This document shows, piece by piece, positions 26,371 to 62,846 of a DNA stretch of 64,000 nt; within the stretch, counting starts at the first letter, position 1; each line of letters opens with the position of its first letter. The stretch covers positions 496,001-560,000 of the forward strand of contig RSEE01000004.1 in assembly GCA_003971905.1 (NCBI GenBank), written 5' to 3'. Both the position numbers and the translations under genes were made by a program. The notes under the pieces are model-generated. The model saw only the letters and a program-made list of their open reading frames with translations, was not told where the DNA came from and ran no database searches. Origin of the DNA: Moniliella sp. 'wahieum'. Its lineage: Eukaryota; Basidiomycota; Moniliellomycetes; Moniliellales; Moniliellaceae.

Positions 26371-29300
26371 TTAAGTCGTCGTGTCGGACATAGGAGACGG
26401 AGAGAACCGATCGCCATGCTCCAAGGGGAGAGAGGAAATCGGAGACGACGGACGCATACGTGAGGGGCGCCTATGCGCGGGAGCGGGCGGGAGGAAGCCG
26501 TCCAGGGGATCCAGGGGCTCGACTTCGCCATTAAACGGACTGGGGACCGAGGTGAGCACGCTCACGGGTGAAGACGCATCCGACACCTGACCAATGGACG
26601 ACGAAATGAGATCCTGAATTCCCTCGTCCTCGTCTAACTTGTCCTCAACGGCCGCGGAGACTGTCCACGTCATATCCCCGGTGGCGAAGAGAGATCGGAG
26701 GAGGAGACGGGGGGGGGCGCAGGGGTGAGAGCCTCTTCCCCAGGTTGTTCCAGATCGGAGAGGGAAGACGTGTCGCTGAACGTGTCGATGATTGCAGCAA
26801 GGGACGTATCCACCGTTGTACTGGGGTGGTCCCCACCAATGGACTCTTTCCCGTCCACCTCCCCAACTGCTTTCATTCCAAGAGGACCATCTTCAAGGGA
26901 CCCAGCTCTCACAAGGGGTTCATCCTCAAGAGGCTCGTCCACACTCGCTTCCCTCCCCGAAGGTCTCCCTCAAGTGACTCCTCCACAACGGATTCCTCTT
27001 CAAGAGGCTCCTCCACAAGGCAGTCCTCTTCAAGATGATGGTCCTCGTGGAACTCCTCTTCGTAAGGGGTTTCTTCAGGAGGCATCTCCTGAGCAGGCAC
27101 CTCCTGAGCAGGTACCTCTTGAGCAGGCACCTCCTGAGCAGGCACATCTTGAGCAGGCACCTCCTGAGCAGGCACTTCCTGAGAAGGCACCTGAGCTGGA
27201 ATCTCCTGAGCAGGAATCTCCTGAGCAGGAATCTCCTGAGCAGGAATCTCCTGAACAAGAATCTCCTGAACAAGAATCTCCTGAACAAGAATCTCCTCAG
27301 CAGGAATCTCCTCGGCCGGCTCCTCAATAAGCGTCTCCTCAATATTCCCCTCCTGAGAAGGCTCCTCATTTGCAGACACATCCATAGTAGGCTCTTCCGT
27401 AGCAAGCTTTTGCATACGAATCTCCTCACTAGGCACATCTTGGGCAGGTGGATCATCTTCGAGGGACCCATCTTGCACAAGAGATTCAGCACCTAGACGT
27501 TCCTCCACTCTGGCTTCCTCTGCGAGAAGGTCCCCCTCAAGTGGCTCTTCCACAAGGAATTCTTCCTCGAGAAGGTCATCCTCGTGGAACTCTTCTTCGC
27601 AAGGGGTTTCGTCAAGAGGCACATCCGTAGCGGGCACCTCCTTAGCAGGCACCTCCTTAGCAGGCACCTCCTTAGCAGGCACCTCCTTAGCAGACACCTC
27701 CTGAACAGGCACGCCCTGAGCAGGGAACTCCTCAAGAGGCCCCTTATCAGCCGGCTCCTCAATAAGCGACTCCTCAAGAGACCCTTGCTGAGTGAGCTCT
27801 TCAATAAGCGTCACATTAATACGCTTATCCGGAGCAGGCTCCTCCACAGGCTTCTCCTCAAGAGGCCCCTCCCGAGCAGGCTCCTTCATAGGAAGCTCAT
27901 CCTGAGAAGGCACCTCCTTAGCAGGCACCTTCTCAGCAGACACCTTCTCAGCAGACACCTCTACAACAGGCTGTGCCTTAGCGGGCTCCTGTTCTAGAGG
28001 CTCAGCACGAGGCTCTTGCCCAAGGGGATCCTCTCGCGTTTCCCCCTGACCAGGATCACTCAAACGGGATTGATCTAGAGGTACTGCGGAATAGGCGCCG
28101 CCTCACCCGGCTCACTTGGCGAGACTCCACCTGCCGTAAAATCTCCGCAGGAGGCTCCGACTTGCGATGCTCTCCTCCTCTCGACACCCTTCAACATGAG
28201 CCTCCTCAGCATGAATGCCCCGATGAAGATGCTCTTCCTCCAGGTGGCGTACCTACGCGCGGCTCACCCACATGTGGGCTTTCCTCCAGCGCTTGATTCA
28301 CGGGTGACTTTGCCTCCATTGGGACGGTTGCGCCCGAACCTTCGGCTAATGGGTCCGTCAAAGTCAACGAGGCCGAGGAGACGAAGGACGCCGCACCCTG
28401 TGGGGTTGGCACCTCCTCGGTAGCAGAGAGTTCCTCGCCTTGGTAGTGGGAGGCAGGCACTGCAAGCATGGCAGTGGTTTGCCCCGCCTCAGATGAGACA
28501 GCGTCTTTCATCGGCTCCATAGGAGGGTGGGAGGGAGAGGCGGCTGGGGGTTCCAATGACGGTACGACGCAGTCCTCCTTCTCAACTGAAGGATCCACAG
28601 TGGCCGGCGTGGTTGTTGGCAGGATTAGCTCCCCGTCCGCTTTTTCCACTTCCTCCATCTGGCTGGCAGATGGTTCGGGCCCAGAGGCGGGTTTGGGTGC
28701 AAATGGTGCAAGGGGCGATGATCCCCCTCATGTTGGCAGGTGCGTCCCCTGAGGAAGTGGGGACCATAGGCAGAGGAAATGGACCTGCCATTTCGGTGCT
28801 CACCCCTGGGACTACGGGGGAAGCAGGGGTAACCGTCACGTCCATCAACTCACTGGAGGGATGACCTGGCTCGGCGATAGGGAGAGTTGTAACCAGCTGA
28901 GAGGAAGGGTCGGTATTTAATTCAGCGGCAACGGAGACGGGCGCATCCTCCGTTCCTTCCATGGCAGAGACGGTGCGGGGCTGTTCAGGGAGGCACATAT
29001 TCAGTTGTGAATGCGTATGTGCCTCTCCCACTACGTTGACCTCGAGTGCGGGGGGTGCTGGTCGTGCTTCAGCACTCCCCTGGTCGGTGGACGGTATCCT
29101 GAGCACCGGTGATTCCGTTTTGGCGGCGGCAGGGATCGTCCTCGTGGTACCATGGGGGGCTGAGTAGTGGTAGTACTACACCCGGTATGACGTTGGGAAG
29201 CATCGTCTTCAGCCACGCTGGCCACCGGCATCACACTTTCATGGTCCTTGGGCGCCAGAACATGTTGGCTTTTGTTCTTTCCGTTCAACTCGTGAGGTCT

Positions 29301-31135
29301 GGACCCGAGGCCATCCATGTCAGGGGTGGGCCACACCCAGATGTTGGATCTGAAAGAAGGGGGGTTAGTGGATTCTCGGACTTCCGGAAGGCACCTTATA
29401 CGTACGAGCCATCCAGTAGCCTAGGCTCCGTCAATGTGACCGGCTTCGTAGATGGTGGGACATGGGGTAAGTCCCAGCCGAGTCGCTGGGCAAGGTAGCT
29501 AACGATGTATCAGGGTCACCGAGAAGCTGACATCCGACTGAAAGTGGGGCACATGTGTCTGATGATCATAATAACCGGGGACCGATGCGGCATGAGTGCG
29601 ACCAAGTCGGCAGCGAGCGTCGAGGCGTTCAGTGGAGAGCCTACAATAATAATCAGATCTGCGTAGTGGACGGTCCACCTCGAGAAGTCTTGCAGTTGGC
29701 TCGACACGCTCTCTCCGACAAATGCAATGTCAGGCTGACAAAGTCAGAAAAGTTCCAAAAAAGAAGAGGAAAGCAGACGTACCTTGAGTACCCCCAAGCC
29801 AGGCTGGGCATCATTTTCTTGCGCAAAGACCCAGTGCACCTCACCATTGGGTCCCGCACGTTTTTTGCGTCGTTGATTGACAGCGCGTTCCTCGCAGGTA
29901 GGGCATTGGGGTACTTCCCTGGCCATAATGGCTGCTTGTATCTGCGCCTTCTCGACCCGCGTTTTACATGTTGGATCGGTACAGGTGGCCGTAGCGATGC
30001 TGCCGTGACATTGGAATAAGCGCGTGATGCCTGCCGATTGTCCGAGCATGTCGATGTTCTCAGTGTAATTGCGCAACAGCCGGTCCCGGTCTTGTAGAAG
30101 CTTGACAAACTGATACGAGACCGAAGGTTGAGCAGTCGAAGAAAAAATTGTATGTCTACACCAAGTCAGTATTCTCCTGTATGTGAATGTCACCAATCGA
30201 CAGGGGTGTGCACGTACGCAGCATTGTAGAAAATGCTCGGGTTGGCAAAAAGCGGCTGATGTCAAACATGTCATCCGGGATTTGGACATCAGAGGTTCCC
30301 TCGAATGAATATAAATACCGTTTTGGGAGCGAACGTCGAGGTTCCCGCCAGGCGCACTGATTTCCGCTCCGGTCAAGACAAGGATGTTGTGGGCCGCAAG
30401 GATCAAGTTGACCGCATCATCAGGGTGCTGTATTGGTCCAAACGGGGACGTTGTTGCAATGCTCGATCAGCTTTATTTAACGGCACATCAGCTTGTCTCA
30501 TGCGCTCTGCGAGAATGCTCACTAATTGGTCTCTGGGTAGGTCACGATTCACAAAGTATTCAGCCTGGGGAAAGTGTCAGTTTAATGCGCTTGTGCTTTA
30601 CACAAACTACAAGAGCATCACATACCTTTTCAAGCCCTTTGGCGGCGAGAAACAAGGGAATCTAGGGAACAAAATCGAGTGTCAGCTATCTGACGCCCCT
30701 GCACCTCGTTGCCACAGGCACCAACGAACATCCAAATCGTTTGCATAACGATTTAACCAACGCTCCAGGCCGTAGTTTTGTAGATCCGTATGGAGTTGCT
30801 CAAGACGATCAGGGGGAAACGCCTGGTGAGCTAGCACAGCATTTAGGGGGTTAAGAACGCGTTCCATTCCATCTCCCAGCGCGGGGTGTCAGGGGGTCAA
30901 GTGGTAACGAACCGGCCTGCTTGAGCTGCTCAGCCCGCATGTCGGACTCTAACGCCGGAAGACTGGACATGTCGGAAACGAAGGGGAGACGCGTGCTCCA
31001 GAGTTCGACACTGCAAGCGCAGAGGGAAAAGGAGACAACGGCGATGGTGGTGGCGATGGAGTTGAAGAGTAGTCCGCCGTGCCCCGCCGCTAGCGCTAGC
31101 AGACGCAGCGGCGACAACTCTGGCACACTAGTCAT
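26371..31135 (-). CDS. Sir2/Hst1-type sirtuin with very long acidic repeat C-terminal tail
   Basis: Sirtuins remove acyl groups from lysines using NAD. The core reads, in order: ILVLTGAEIS with NLDVRSQNGIY (30380-30320), PDDMFDIS with NPSIFYNAA, LLRNYTENIDMLGQSAGI (30075-30030), the catalytic-His motif FQCHGSIATATC, a zinc site C-x4-C ... C-x2-C, GVLK spliced to PDIAFVGES (intron about 29782-29730), ADLIIIVGSPLNAST, and LAQRLGWDLPHV. This layout fits the Sir2/Hst1 branch. Several NAD-pocket residues differ from consensus. An intron at about 29404-29344 (GTACGTAT donor, CACTAACCC branch, TTTCTTTCAG acceptor) joins the core to a further coding run of acidic, Pro/Glu-rich sequence reaching a stop at 26371, with several single-base frame steps. 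The tail could still be a separate gene if that splice is not used. Start: 31135, or an in-frame ATG at about 30940. Confidence 0.7.
27083..27316 (-). repeat. 15-bp coding minisatellite, PAQEV/PAQEI units
   Basis: About fifteen tandem 15-bp units read on the + strand as CTCCTGAGCAGGCAC and variants. On the minus strand they encode VPAQE, IPAQE and ILVQE pentapeptides in the sirtuin tail. Neighbouring copies are nearly identical, while subtypes form blocks (PAQEV, PAQEI, VQEIL). This suggests recent stepwise duplication. Confidence 0.9.
27619..27712 (-). repeat. Second 15-bp coding minisatellite, PAKEV units
   Basis: Five to six units of CTCCTTAGCAGGCAC encode VPAKE repeats on the minus strand. 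They are flanked on both sides by larger duplicated acidic blocks (EEEFHEDD and LVEEPLEGD type) that also occur beside the first array. Confidence 0.85.
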
Positions 31136-61149: not shown

Positions 61150-62550
61150 CGCCAGCCAACCTCCCTGCACAACACGATTCGAGTGCGAGACCATCCGTAT
61201 TTAATAAACGAAGCGCGTTTATCAATCTTCGCCCACACCGCGAGCCCATAGCGGTGGCAAACGGGCCGATCGCATACACTAAAGGCATTGGCACCATTTC
61301 TATGTACATCCAAACCCAGAACGGAGCTCCTATCCGCATCCACCTTCCTGGCAGTTTGTACTGCCCTACCTTCCCGACCAACCTCCTAAGCGCTTATCAT
61401 CTCTCTGTCGCAGGCATTGGCAGCCGGATCCCTCCAGGTGGCCATGGCCTCTACCTTGGTCGACACGGCGAACCCCTCGCCGCCGCCGATTCAAGCTATT
61501 CCCTCACTCTTGCGTCTAATACGTCAGCCACAGCCAACAGCGCCACTTCGCCACTCAACCTTGAAGCAACCCTGGTCAAGGTGAAAAACGCCCACATCCG
61601 ATGGAACCATGCACCACTAGATCAACTTTCAACTCTCACGTCGGACGACCAGCATTCGAACGGGTCAGGAGTGGCGACATCGTTTTAGTCCGGTCCTCGT
61701 GGCACTGTCCCCATGCGCACTAAGCAGAGCCACTGCCCCACCCCACGCTACGACTGGACGCCCAATCCGAACCATTCGCCCTTTCTCTCTCCTTCACCTC
61801 GATGTCCTCGACATATCCCGCCAAAACGGTGGGGGTCATACGTACGCCCTTATCATTGTCGACGATTTTACGCGGTATACCTGGACGCTACCCTTGGTGT
61901 CCAAGAGTGATGCCACAGCCCAACTTCAGACCTTTATCCGGCGAGAGCATCGCCAACATCCCGACCGCCCCCTTCAGACTGTCCGCTCTGACAATGCGCC
62001 CTGAACTTACCACCGCAATGGACGACTTTTACTGCGAACTAGGCGTAGTGAGGGAGCGCACCAATCCTGGCGAAAGTGCGTCCAATGGGGTCGCCGAACG
62101 CGCCATAAGATCGATTACGGATCGCGCTCGACTCATGGTAGTCGCCAACCGATTGGTTCCCGACGAGTGGTGGGAACACAGCTTGTTGGCAGCCACATAC
62201 GCACACAACCAGTCGCCGCCGATGGCACTGGGTGGTGACAGCCGATTTGTCCGATACATGGCTTCAAACCTTCCCTTCGCATGCGCGGTTTTGGCACCCT
62301 TGCTTACCTGCACCTATTGCCCAACCAACGCGAGGGCGGCATACTTGGTCCGCGGGCCGTCCCAGCTATGTTGGTGGGTTACGGGCACGGTCACGGTTCG
62401 AAAGGGTGGCTCTTTGCCATCCACCAGGATGACGGCCAGGTTGGATTCCGCTGGAAAAAGCCGTCCACCTGGACACATGTTCCGTACACCACCGAATATC
62501 CCACGCACTTTCATCTGTCCCCCCTTGTTCCTCCTGTGATGGAGAGGTGA
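61150..62550 (+). pseudogene. copia pol remnant: protease and integrase
   Basis: A protease-like start HDSSARPSVFNKRSAFINL (active-site region at 61176-61187) leads to VANGPIAYTKGIGTISM, then the pre-integrase segment with LPGSLYCPTFPTNLLS and the histidine-bearing HIRWNHAP. The integrase core has HLDVLDISRQNGGGHTY, IIVDDFTRYTWTLPLV, VRSDNAP and, after a frame step near 62003, NPGESASNGVAERAIRSI, giving D, D and E of the catalytic triad. The C-terminal integrase part ends at 62550. No YVDD-type reverse transcriptase motif was found. Confidence 0.75.
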
Positions 62551-62626
62551 GGGGGGGCGGAGGGATGGGTGCTGTGGGGCAGTCAGACAGCTCTCCACCC
62601 CGTCGGCGTGTGCGTTTTGCGATCGA

Positions 62627-62846
62627 TGAATCGCAGTCCCGTACATAGGCCAAGGCGCCTTATCACCCTTCGCCCCCAGGCCTCATTTGACCTCCGAAGT
62701 CTCCACGCGTGTATACTCAGGCTTGTTCGAACCCTGTCTCCTCTAGGTGGGCATAGGCTTACTAGACTCAACCACCACCACCGCAATGCATTGCTTTACA
62801 TTTCCAGAGGCTCATCGCCCAACCCCTTGGGTTCCTCCGGTCTTCA
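62627..62846 (+). repeat. 3' LTR of copia element
   Basis: Matches the 5' LTR from GTCCCGTACATAGG to the terminal CTTCA, with shorter spacing in several places. A purine-rich tract GAGAGGTGAGGGGGGGCGGAGG lies about 65 bp upstream and may be the remains of the polypurine tract. The left boundary is diverged; TG at 62627 is the best guess. Confidence 0.75.

What the first reader, a model, noticed from the sequence alone, without database searches (positions are those of the whole stretch)
30005..30400. Sirtuin with substituted NAD-pocket residues but intact catalytic His and zinc site
The sequence aligns without gaps to the Sir2/Hst1 core, yet the glycine-rich NAD loop GAGIS reads GAEIS and IPDFRS reads NLDVRS. 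TQNID reads TENID, and the GTS motif near the C-terminal end of the core reads GSP. The catalytic histidine (CHGS) and the C-x4-C...C-x2-C zinc ligands are kept. These are base substitutions, not the single-base losses seen elsewhere, so error is an unlikely cause. Such residues contact NAD in known sirtuins, so the protein may have altered acyl or NAD chemistry, or act as a non-enzymatic reader or scaffold.
Basis: partly seen in the sequence, partly recalled or inferred. Interest (0 to 1): 0.7.

Follow-up and report, generated by a model that had tools for sequence, protein, structure and literature searches.

The report
Decaying duplicate of a fungal sirtuin
This is one of three related copies of a Sir2-type gene in a basidiomycete fungus; its cofactor pocket really is altered in both chromosome sets, but the gene is evolving almost without constraint, so it looks more like a spare copy losing its function than like a new enzyme.

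Summary
The substitutions are real. The window is one of two haplotypes of a 69.5 Mb fungal assembly, and the allelic copy on contig C16 carries the same GAEIS, NLD(V/L)RS, TENID and GSP, plus Asn-to-Ser at a further NAD contact. The catalytic His and all four zinc Cys are kept. Two close paralogues, each an allelic pair, are canonical at all 17 NAD contacts checked: B (C17/C65, in a block collinear with the window) and C (C3/C61).

The functional reading is only partly supported. Between haplotypes copy A has 24 amino-acid-changing against 14 silent codon differences (omega about 0.6, not distinguishable from 1); B has 3:11, C 4:12. Copy A has lost 24 of 116 deeply conserved residues, B 2 of 87, C 7 of 92. 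Losses are not significantly concentrated at NAD contacts (6 of 16 against 16 of 69, P=0.19). Best explanation: a redundant Sir2/Hst1 duplicate that has very probably lost NAD-dependent deacylation and is decaying. A retained non-enzymatic partner is possible but not favoured. Eight frame breaks in the window copy are absent from C16; error and allele-specific decay cannot be separated.

The parts
30218..30450 (-). Core exon with the NAD-binding loop: ...VLTGAEISAPGGNLDVRSQNGIY... (canonical GAGIS / GIPDFRS)
   Evidence: same stretch is one open frame in the allele, L018 3655-4044
30156..30217 (-). Intron, 62 bases, same place and length in the C16 allele (the alignment model demands GT-AG ends)
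29783..30155 (-). Core exon with TENID (canonical TQNID), catalytic CHGS and the four zinc cysteines
   Evidence: Pfam SIR2 PF02146, 84.1 bits for the reading frame that holds it
29735..29782 (-). Intron, 48 bases; 49 bases in the C16 allele (the alignment model demands GT-AG ends)
29399..29734 (-). Core exon with FVGE, GSPLN (canonical GTSLN) and the region of the INK Asn, which is Ser in C16 and unreadable here because of a frame break
30682..30888 (-). Likely part of the N-terminal region (..FPPDRLEQLHTDLQNYGLERWLNRYANDLD..), 56% identical to paralogue B over 39 residues; exon ends not determined
28200..29360 (-). Probable C-terminal tail beginning SNIWVWP (SYIWTWP in B); exact structure not resolved
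   Evidence: reading frames; inference

Best explanation
Copy A is a Sir2/Hst1-type sirtuin gene made redundant by duplication of a block of about 40 kb or more. Its partner B (C17/C65) and a third paralogue C (C3/C61) keep an intact NAD pocket and stay under strong constraint. Copy A was constrained for most of its history. Before the two haplotypes of this strain diverged it lost constraint and fixed changes at NAD contacts (the third residue of GAG to Glu, Ile to Asn and Phe to Val/Leu in GIPDFR, Gln to Glu in TQNID, the last residue of GTS to Pro; Asn to Ser in INK is seen in the one readable allele). The likely consequence is that any protein made folds, zinc site included, but no longer binds NAD well and does not deacylate. 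The gene is decaying, or at most keeps a weak non-enzymatic role. Shown: substitutions in both haplotypes, their absence from B and C, relaxed constraint, block collinearity. Inferred: loss of NAD binding, redundancy as the cause, timing.
For: Allele shares the substitutions. B and C are canonical at all 17 NAD contacts checked. Omega between alleles: A 0.59 (NG86) or 0.86 (YN00), B 0.11 or 0.14, C 0.10 or 0.11. Changing:silent codons, first 290 positions: A 23:13, B 3:10, C 1:11, Fisher A against B+C P=0.0002; 18:11 against 3:16 after dropping codons within two of a frame break, P=0.003. Branch model: omega of A tips 0.61 against 0.084 for B and C tips, P=0.0019; omega=1 for A tips not rejected, P=0.21. 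Deeply conserved residues lost: A 24 of 116, B 2 of 87, C 7 of 92. The next gene, ATP3, has allelic omega 0.07 between the same haplotypes (2 changing codons of 291), so base errors do not explain the excess. 12 of 14 listed window-C17 BLAST blocks lie in the same order and orientation.
Against: The C16 allele shows no in-frame stop in the core and one frame break, within the noise of control genes. About 2 stops would be expected from neutral change of this size (0.040 stops per missense change, times about 48 changes; my arithmetic), so their absence is weak evidence that the frame is kept. The catalytic His, the Asn and Asp of TxNID and four of four zinc Cys survive, and 63 of 85 deeply conserved residues are unchanged. 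A first version of the branch test, with stricter filtering and 241 sites, did not separate A tips from B and C tips (P about 0.09 by my arithmetic). Three short control pieces also have high ratios (5:3, 6:2, 3:5); against all eight control pieces the contrast is P=0.027 unfiltered and 0.079 filtered. Synonymous change between A, B and C is large or saturated, so stem omegas are rough.
Confidence: 0.66

Rival explanations
1. Retained pseudo-sirtuin: copy A has lost NAD-dependent catalysis but is kept as a non-enzymatic partner, acetyl-lysine reader or competitor of paralogue B.
For: Nearly open core in the C16 allele (one break, no stop), introns at the same places in both alleles, zinc site and most conserved residues kept, stem omega only 0.18. 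Precedents for non-catalytic or paired sirtuin action: SIRT1 mutants without deacetylase activity still protect neurons (PMC2605257, abstract and passages); FAM118A and FAM118B process NAD well only together (PMC12700824, abstract and passages).
Against: Near-neutral allelic divergence, with changes from the B state found on both alleles (list); losses not significantly concentrated at NAD contacts, P=0.19; changes also hit positions outside the contact list, such as FFGE to FVGE, F132I, P242T and V243L.
Confidence: 0.22
2. Enzyme with altered NAD or acyl chemistry under new selection.
For: Catalytic His, the Asn and Asp of the TxNID motif, the Arg of DFR and the Tyr of GIY are kept; fast amino-acid change is also what adaptation would give.
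Against: A charge in the pyrophosphate loop, Gln to Glu in TQNID, Ser to Pro in GTS and Asn to Ser in INK together remove contacts rather than reshape one (inference); no branch class fitted has omega above 1; residue F39 differs between the alleles (Val/Leu), unlike a selected new pocket.
Confidence: 0.05
3. Active ordinary sirtuin with tolerated substitutions.
For: One of the changed positions varies in known sirtuins (SIRT1 has GSS for GTS).
Against: Positions 29, 36, 39, 111, 237 and 260 of the core are the same in B, C and in whichever of SIRT1, yeast Sir2 and SIRT3 was aligned at that place.
Confidence: 0.05
4. Sequence or assembly artefact.
For: The assembly has many one-base indels, also in conserved genes; 8 frame breaks in the window copy.
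Against: The substitutions recur in a separately assembled allele at about 95% identity; the neighbouring ATP3 shows only 2 changing codon differences of 291 between the same haplotypes.
Confidence: 0.02

Closest known systems
Sir2/Hst1 subfamily (yeast Sir2, human SIRT1, basidiomycete Sir2)
   Same: Best matches of the three core exons among solved structures are SIRT1 chains, with yeast Sir2 next or among them; zinc site and catalytic His kept.
   Different: Six of 16 conserved NAD-contact positions are substituted in copy A.
Yeast SIR2/HST1 duplicate pair
   Same: Two Sir2-type copies from a duplication, with unequal fates. Subfunctionalisation by complementary inactivating mutations is the title of Froyd and Rusche 2011, seen only in a reference list; start of the abstract of PMC2762165 seen in the listing.
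   Different: In yeast both copies are working deacetylases (recalled); here one copy has lost pocket residues.
FAM118A/FAM118B noncanonical sirtuins
   Same: A paralogue pair with very weak NAD processing alone (PMC12700824, abstract and passages).
   Different: FAM118s resemble bacterial ThsA and need their active-site His and Asn; no evidence of pairing here.
Sirtuins of Ustilago maydis and Cryptococcus neoformans
   Same: Basidiomycete repertoires of five sirtuins, with one Sir2/Hst1 member (PMC10126416, passages; PMC5399365, abstract and section 4).
   Different: This genome has three closely related Sir2/Hst1-type genes per haplotype.

Membership tests
Sir2/Hst1 sirtuin (by descent) | Pfam SIR2 domain and best match to SIRT1 or Sir2 | tested here: met
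   PF02146 84.1 bits on one reading frame, 95.8 bits in the genome search; SIRT1/Sir2 best. No tree with other fungi was built.
Sir2/Hst1 sirtuin (by descent) | Four-Cys zinc site and catalytic His | tested here: met
   All kept in both alleles
Active NAD-dependent deacylase | Canonical NAD-binding motifs GAGxS, GIPDFR, TQNID, G(T/S)S, IN | tested here: not met
   6 of 16 conserved contact positions substituted
Active NAD-dependent deacylase | NAD-dependent deacylation in vitro | not testable with these tools
   needs a bench assay
Functionally conserved pseudoenzyme | Purifying selection on the degenerate protein | tested here: inconclusive
   Omega of allele tips 0.61, not different from 1 (P=0.21), but one strain only and few differences; weak constraint is not excluded
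Functionally conserved pseudoenzyme | Losses confined to the cofactor or catalytic site | tested here: not met
   16 of 22 losses lie outside the contact list; 6 of 16 NAD contacts against 16 of 69 others, P=0.19
Pseudogene | Disrupted reading frame in all alleles | tested here: inconclusive
   8 breaks in the window copy, 1 in C16, none at the same place; assembly noise present
Duplicate from a block or genome duplication | Collinear neighbours around A and B | tested here: met
   12 of 14 listed BLAST blocks in order, window 4.3k-45.6k against C17 172k-222k

The most novel reading that the evidence does not exclude
A basidiomycete pseudo-sirtuin: a Sir2/Hst1 duplicate that has lost NAD binding but is still made and modulates its catalytic twin, for example by occupying the same complex or acetylated targets, with the two haplotypes carrying functionally different versions.
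Probability: 0.2. Interest if true: 0.5.

Novelty: new member of a known kind. Interest (0 to 1): 0.3.

Why it matters
It shows a sirtuin duplicate partway through losing its function: the NAD pocket is already altered in both haplotypes, the zinc site and most conserved residues are still there, and two intact paralogues are in the same genome. That gives a clean internal comparison for how redundancy after duplication relaxes constraint on an NAD-dependent chromatin regulator. It also warns that a domain scan alone, which still calls this gene SIR2, would probably mislabel it as an NAD-dependent deacetylase.

Tried and rejected
Read error as the cause of the substitutions: rejected by the C16 allele. 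A flagellated lineage (considered because of the duplicated block): rejected, since only two dynein heavy-chain matches were found, and spermidine synthase and saccharopine dehydrogenase domains lie together on one strand at 38.9-41.2k (Pfam), an arrangement that PMC10051792 found fused in 48 of 48 basidiomycetes and separate in all 27 ascomycetes, 5 chytrids and 2 oomycetes examined (abstract and passages); that the two are one gene here is inferred. Whole-genome duplication as such: not settled; RNA polymerase largest-subunit domains fall on 7 contigs (lower bound), not the 12 places I would expect if each of three genes were kept twice in both haplotypes. Naming the species by rRNA: the search did not complete three times and was dropped; the species is not identified. 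Selective loss at NAD contacts only: not significant. A relative-rate test with C as outgroup gave 39 A-only against 15 B-only changes, P=0.0015, but depends on the rooting, so the root-free count is preferred. Structure prediction was not run: a spliced protein is not a single frame of the DNA, and a fold model would not show NAD binding. Papers: no title or abstract opening in the listings describes a catalytically dead fungal Sir2 duplicate; this is no proof of absence.

Full report
What is there. The window is G000:C4:496001-560000 of a 69.5 Mb, 223-contig genome. On its minus strand, from about 30.9k down to 29.4k and perhaps further, lies a gene whose core matches Pfam SIR2 and, piece by piece, SIRT1 and yeast Sir2.

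Two haplotypes. Contig C16 aligns along the window in ordered blocks of 91.9-96.4% identity, with one further out-of-order block (63,367 of 64,000 bases covered), and carries the allele of the gene at about 95% DNA identity. In that allele the NAD-loop exon is one open frame reading GAEISAPGGNLDLRSQNGIY, and TENID and GSPLN recur. A further NAD-side residue, the Asn of the INR/INK motif, is Ser in C16; in the window a frame break falls there. The same errors in two separately assembled haplotypes are not credible, so the substitutions are real and most likely older than the haplotype split.

Paralogues. The SIR2 search returned 23 matches in the genome. Two allelic pairs are closest: B on C17/C65 (loci 95.5% identical) and C on C3/C61 (97.4%). 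B and C read GAGIS, GIPDFRS, TQNID, GTS and INK, and TQN is found in every other locus in which the motif was hit (no hit in L016, L017 and L019). The other sirtuin loci are further off: the best tblastn identities of the A, B and C cores over long stretches to L001 and L002 are 28-36%. A and B sit in collinear blocks: 12 of 14 listed window-C17 BLAST blocks lie in the same order, from HSP90 at 4.3k through ATP synthase gamma (ATP3) at 32k and spermidine synthase plus saccharopine dehydrogenase at 39-41k to a weakly PfkB-like gene at 45k (names by Pfam). The other two blocks, at 44.2k, match two places in C17 in the other orientation. B and C share an upstream neighbourhood. Patterns shared against SIRT1 favour A with B (8 sites, against 3 and 2 for the alternatives).

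Frame breaks. A frame-tolerant alignment gave 8 breaks in the window core, 1 in C16, 0 in C17, 2 in C65, 5 in C3 and 6 in C61. The reference was taken from C17, so its zero is by construction; three of those in C3 and C61 fall at the same place in both and are probably alignment effects. Eight control pieces (1269 codons) of the same two haplotypes had 5 (window) and 13 (C16) breaks, for example 3 and 3 in ATP3, and copies of conserved genes elsewhere in the assembly contain stops in the searched frame. In a three-way alignment with C17 the window had 8 private one- or two-base indels in the sirtuin blocks (C16: 3) and 13 in the neighbouring ATP3 block, introns and flanks included (C16: 2), which hints at a noisy stretch. 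But in coding sequence the window sirtuin has more breaks than the controls (P=0.001 and 0.005), while the C16 sirtuin does not (P=0.71). Along the window, such gaps are common and not highest here. I cannot tell whether the window's excess is local noise or real decay of that allele.

Selection. Between alleles, copy A differs at 24 changing and 14 silent codons of 303, B at 3 and 11 of 316, C at 4 and 12 of 307. Limited to the first 290 positions, because the end of C is poorly modelled, the counts are 23:13, 3:10 and 1:11 (Fisher A against B plus C, P=0.0002); without codons within two of a break, 18:11, 3:8 and 0:8 (P=0.003). Five conserved control pieces gave 17:35 (P=0.005 and 0.019); adding the three short pieces makes the controls 31:45 (P=0.027 and 0.079). 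The neutral expectation for copy A is 2.61 changing per silent change; the observed ratios do not differ from it (P=0.21 and 0.22), while B's does (P=0.0001). A codon branch model on 290 positions gave omega 0.61 for the A tips, 0.084 for the B and C tips, 0.18 for the A stem and 0.05 for the B and C stems; A against B and C tips P=0.0019, A tips against 1 P=0.21, A stem against the other stems P=0.0067. An earlier run with 241 positions, including the C-terminal end, gave 0.63 and 0.22 with a log-likelihood difference of 1.41, P about 0.09. Stem estimates are rough because silent change is saturated.

Where the losses fall. Of 85 positions identical in B, C and whichever of SIRT1, yeast Sir2 and SIRT3 could be aligned there, copy A has changed 22 in at least one readable allele and 17 in all readable alleles; 6 of 16 NAD contacts (list recalled from known structures) and 16 of 69 others, P=0.19; zinc ligands 0 of 4. 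Asking the same of each copy in turn against SIRT1 gives 24 of 116 for A, 2 of 87 for B and 7 of 92 for C (A against B P=0.00007, A against C P=0.010). So the domain as a whole has lost constraint, with at most a mild bias to the cofactor site.

Mechanism. In known sirtuins the GAG loop wraps the NAD pyrophosphate, the GIPDFR loop and Gln-Asn of TQN position the nicotinamide ribose, GTS holds phosphate and ribose, and the INR Asn holds the adenine ribose (recalled). A Glu in the loop, loss of the Ile and Phe of GIPDFR, Gln to Glu, Ser to Pro and Asn to Ser together should abolish useful NAD binding, although the His, Asn and Asp that act on it remain. Because B and C are intact, loss of A would be tolerated. 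From the excess of amino-acid change, relaxation seems recent compared with the duplication but older than the haplotype split; this is an inference.

Verdict. Five sirtuins, one for each of five fungal subfamilies, are described for Ustilago maydis (PMC10126416, passages), and five sirtuins with one Sir2 for Cryptococcus neoformans (PMC5399365, abstract and section 4), so three Sir2/Hst1-type genes per haplotype would be more than in either.

Noticed in passing
window 4348-45633 against G000:C17:172001-222000: A duplicated collinear block within a basidiomycete genome that is also split into two haplotypes. Divergence is very uneven between pairs (silent divergence 0.13 in the spermidine synthase piece, 1.7 in the sirtuin), suggesting gene conversion, strong codon bias or different ages.
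   Followed up: partly
window 27080-27312, 27617-27732, 27839-27961; L018 1038-1220, 1337-1430: 15-base tandem arrays (five-residue repeats if read on the minus strand) downstream of the sirtuin core, different in length between haplotypes and not found in the first 3.1 kb of L009, the duplicate.
   Followed up: partly
window ~14.6k and ~37.4k; 61151-62630: C16 carries about 6.2 kb and 5.6 kb that the window lacks; part of the second matches window 61151-62630 at 91.9%, as a mobile element would.
   Followed up: no
G000:C118:86752-87570, C134:48535-50298: Matches to the RNA polymerase largest-subunit domain with several stops in the searched frame while others are open; frame noise in the assembly or introns read through.
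   Followed up: no
G000:C223 and C10: A further sirtuin locus whose copy on the 32 kb contig C223 has its two parts at opposite ends of the contig, continuous with each other in C10 (L016, L017 against L019), as if that contig were circular or cut open inside the gene.
   Followed up: no
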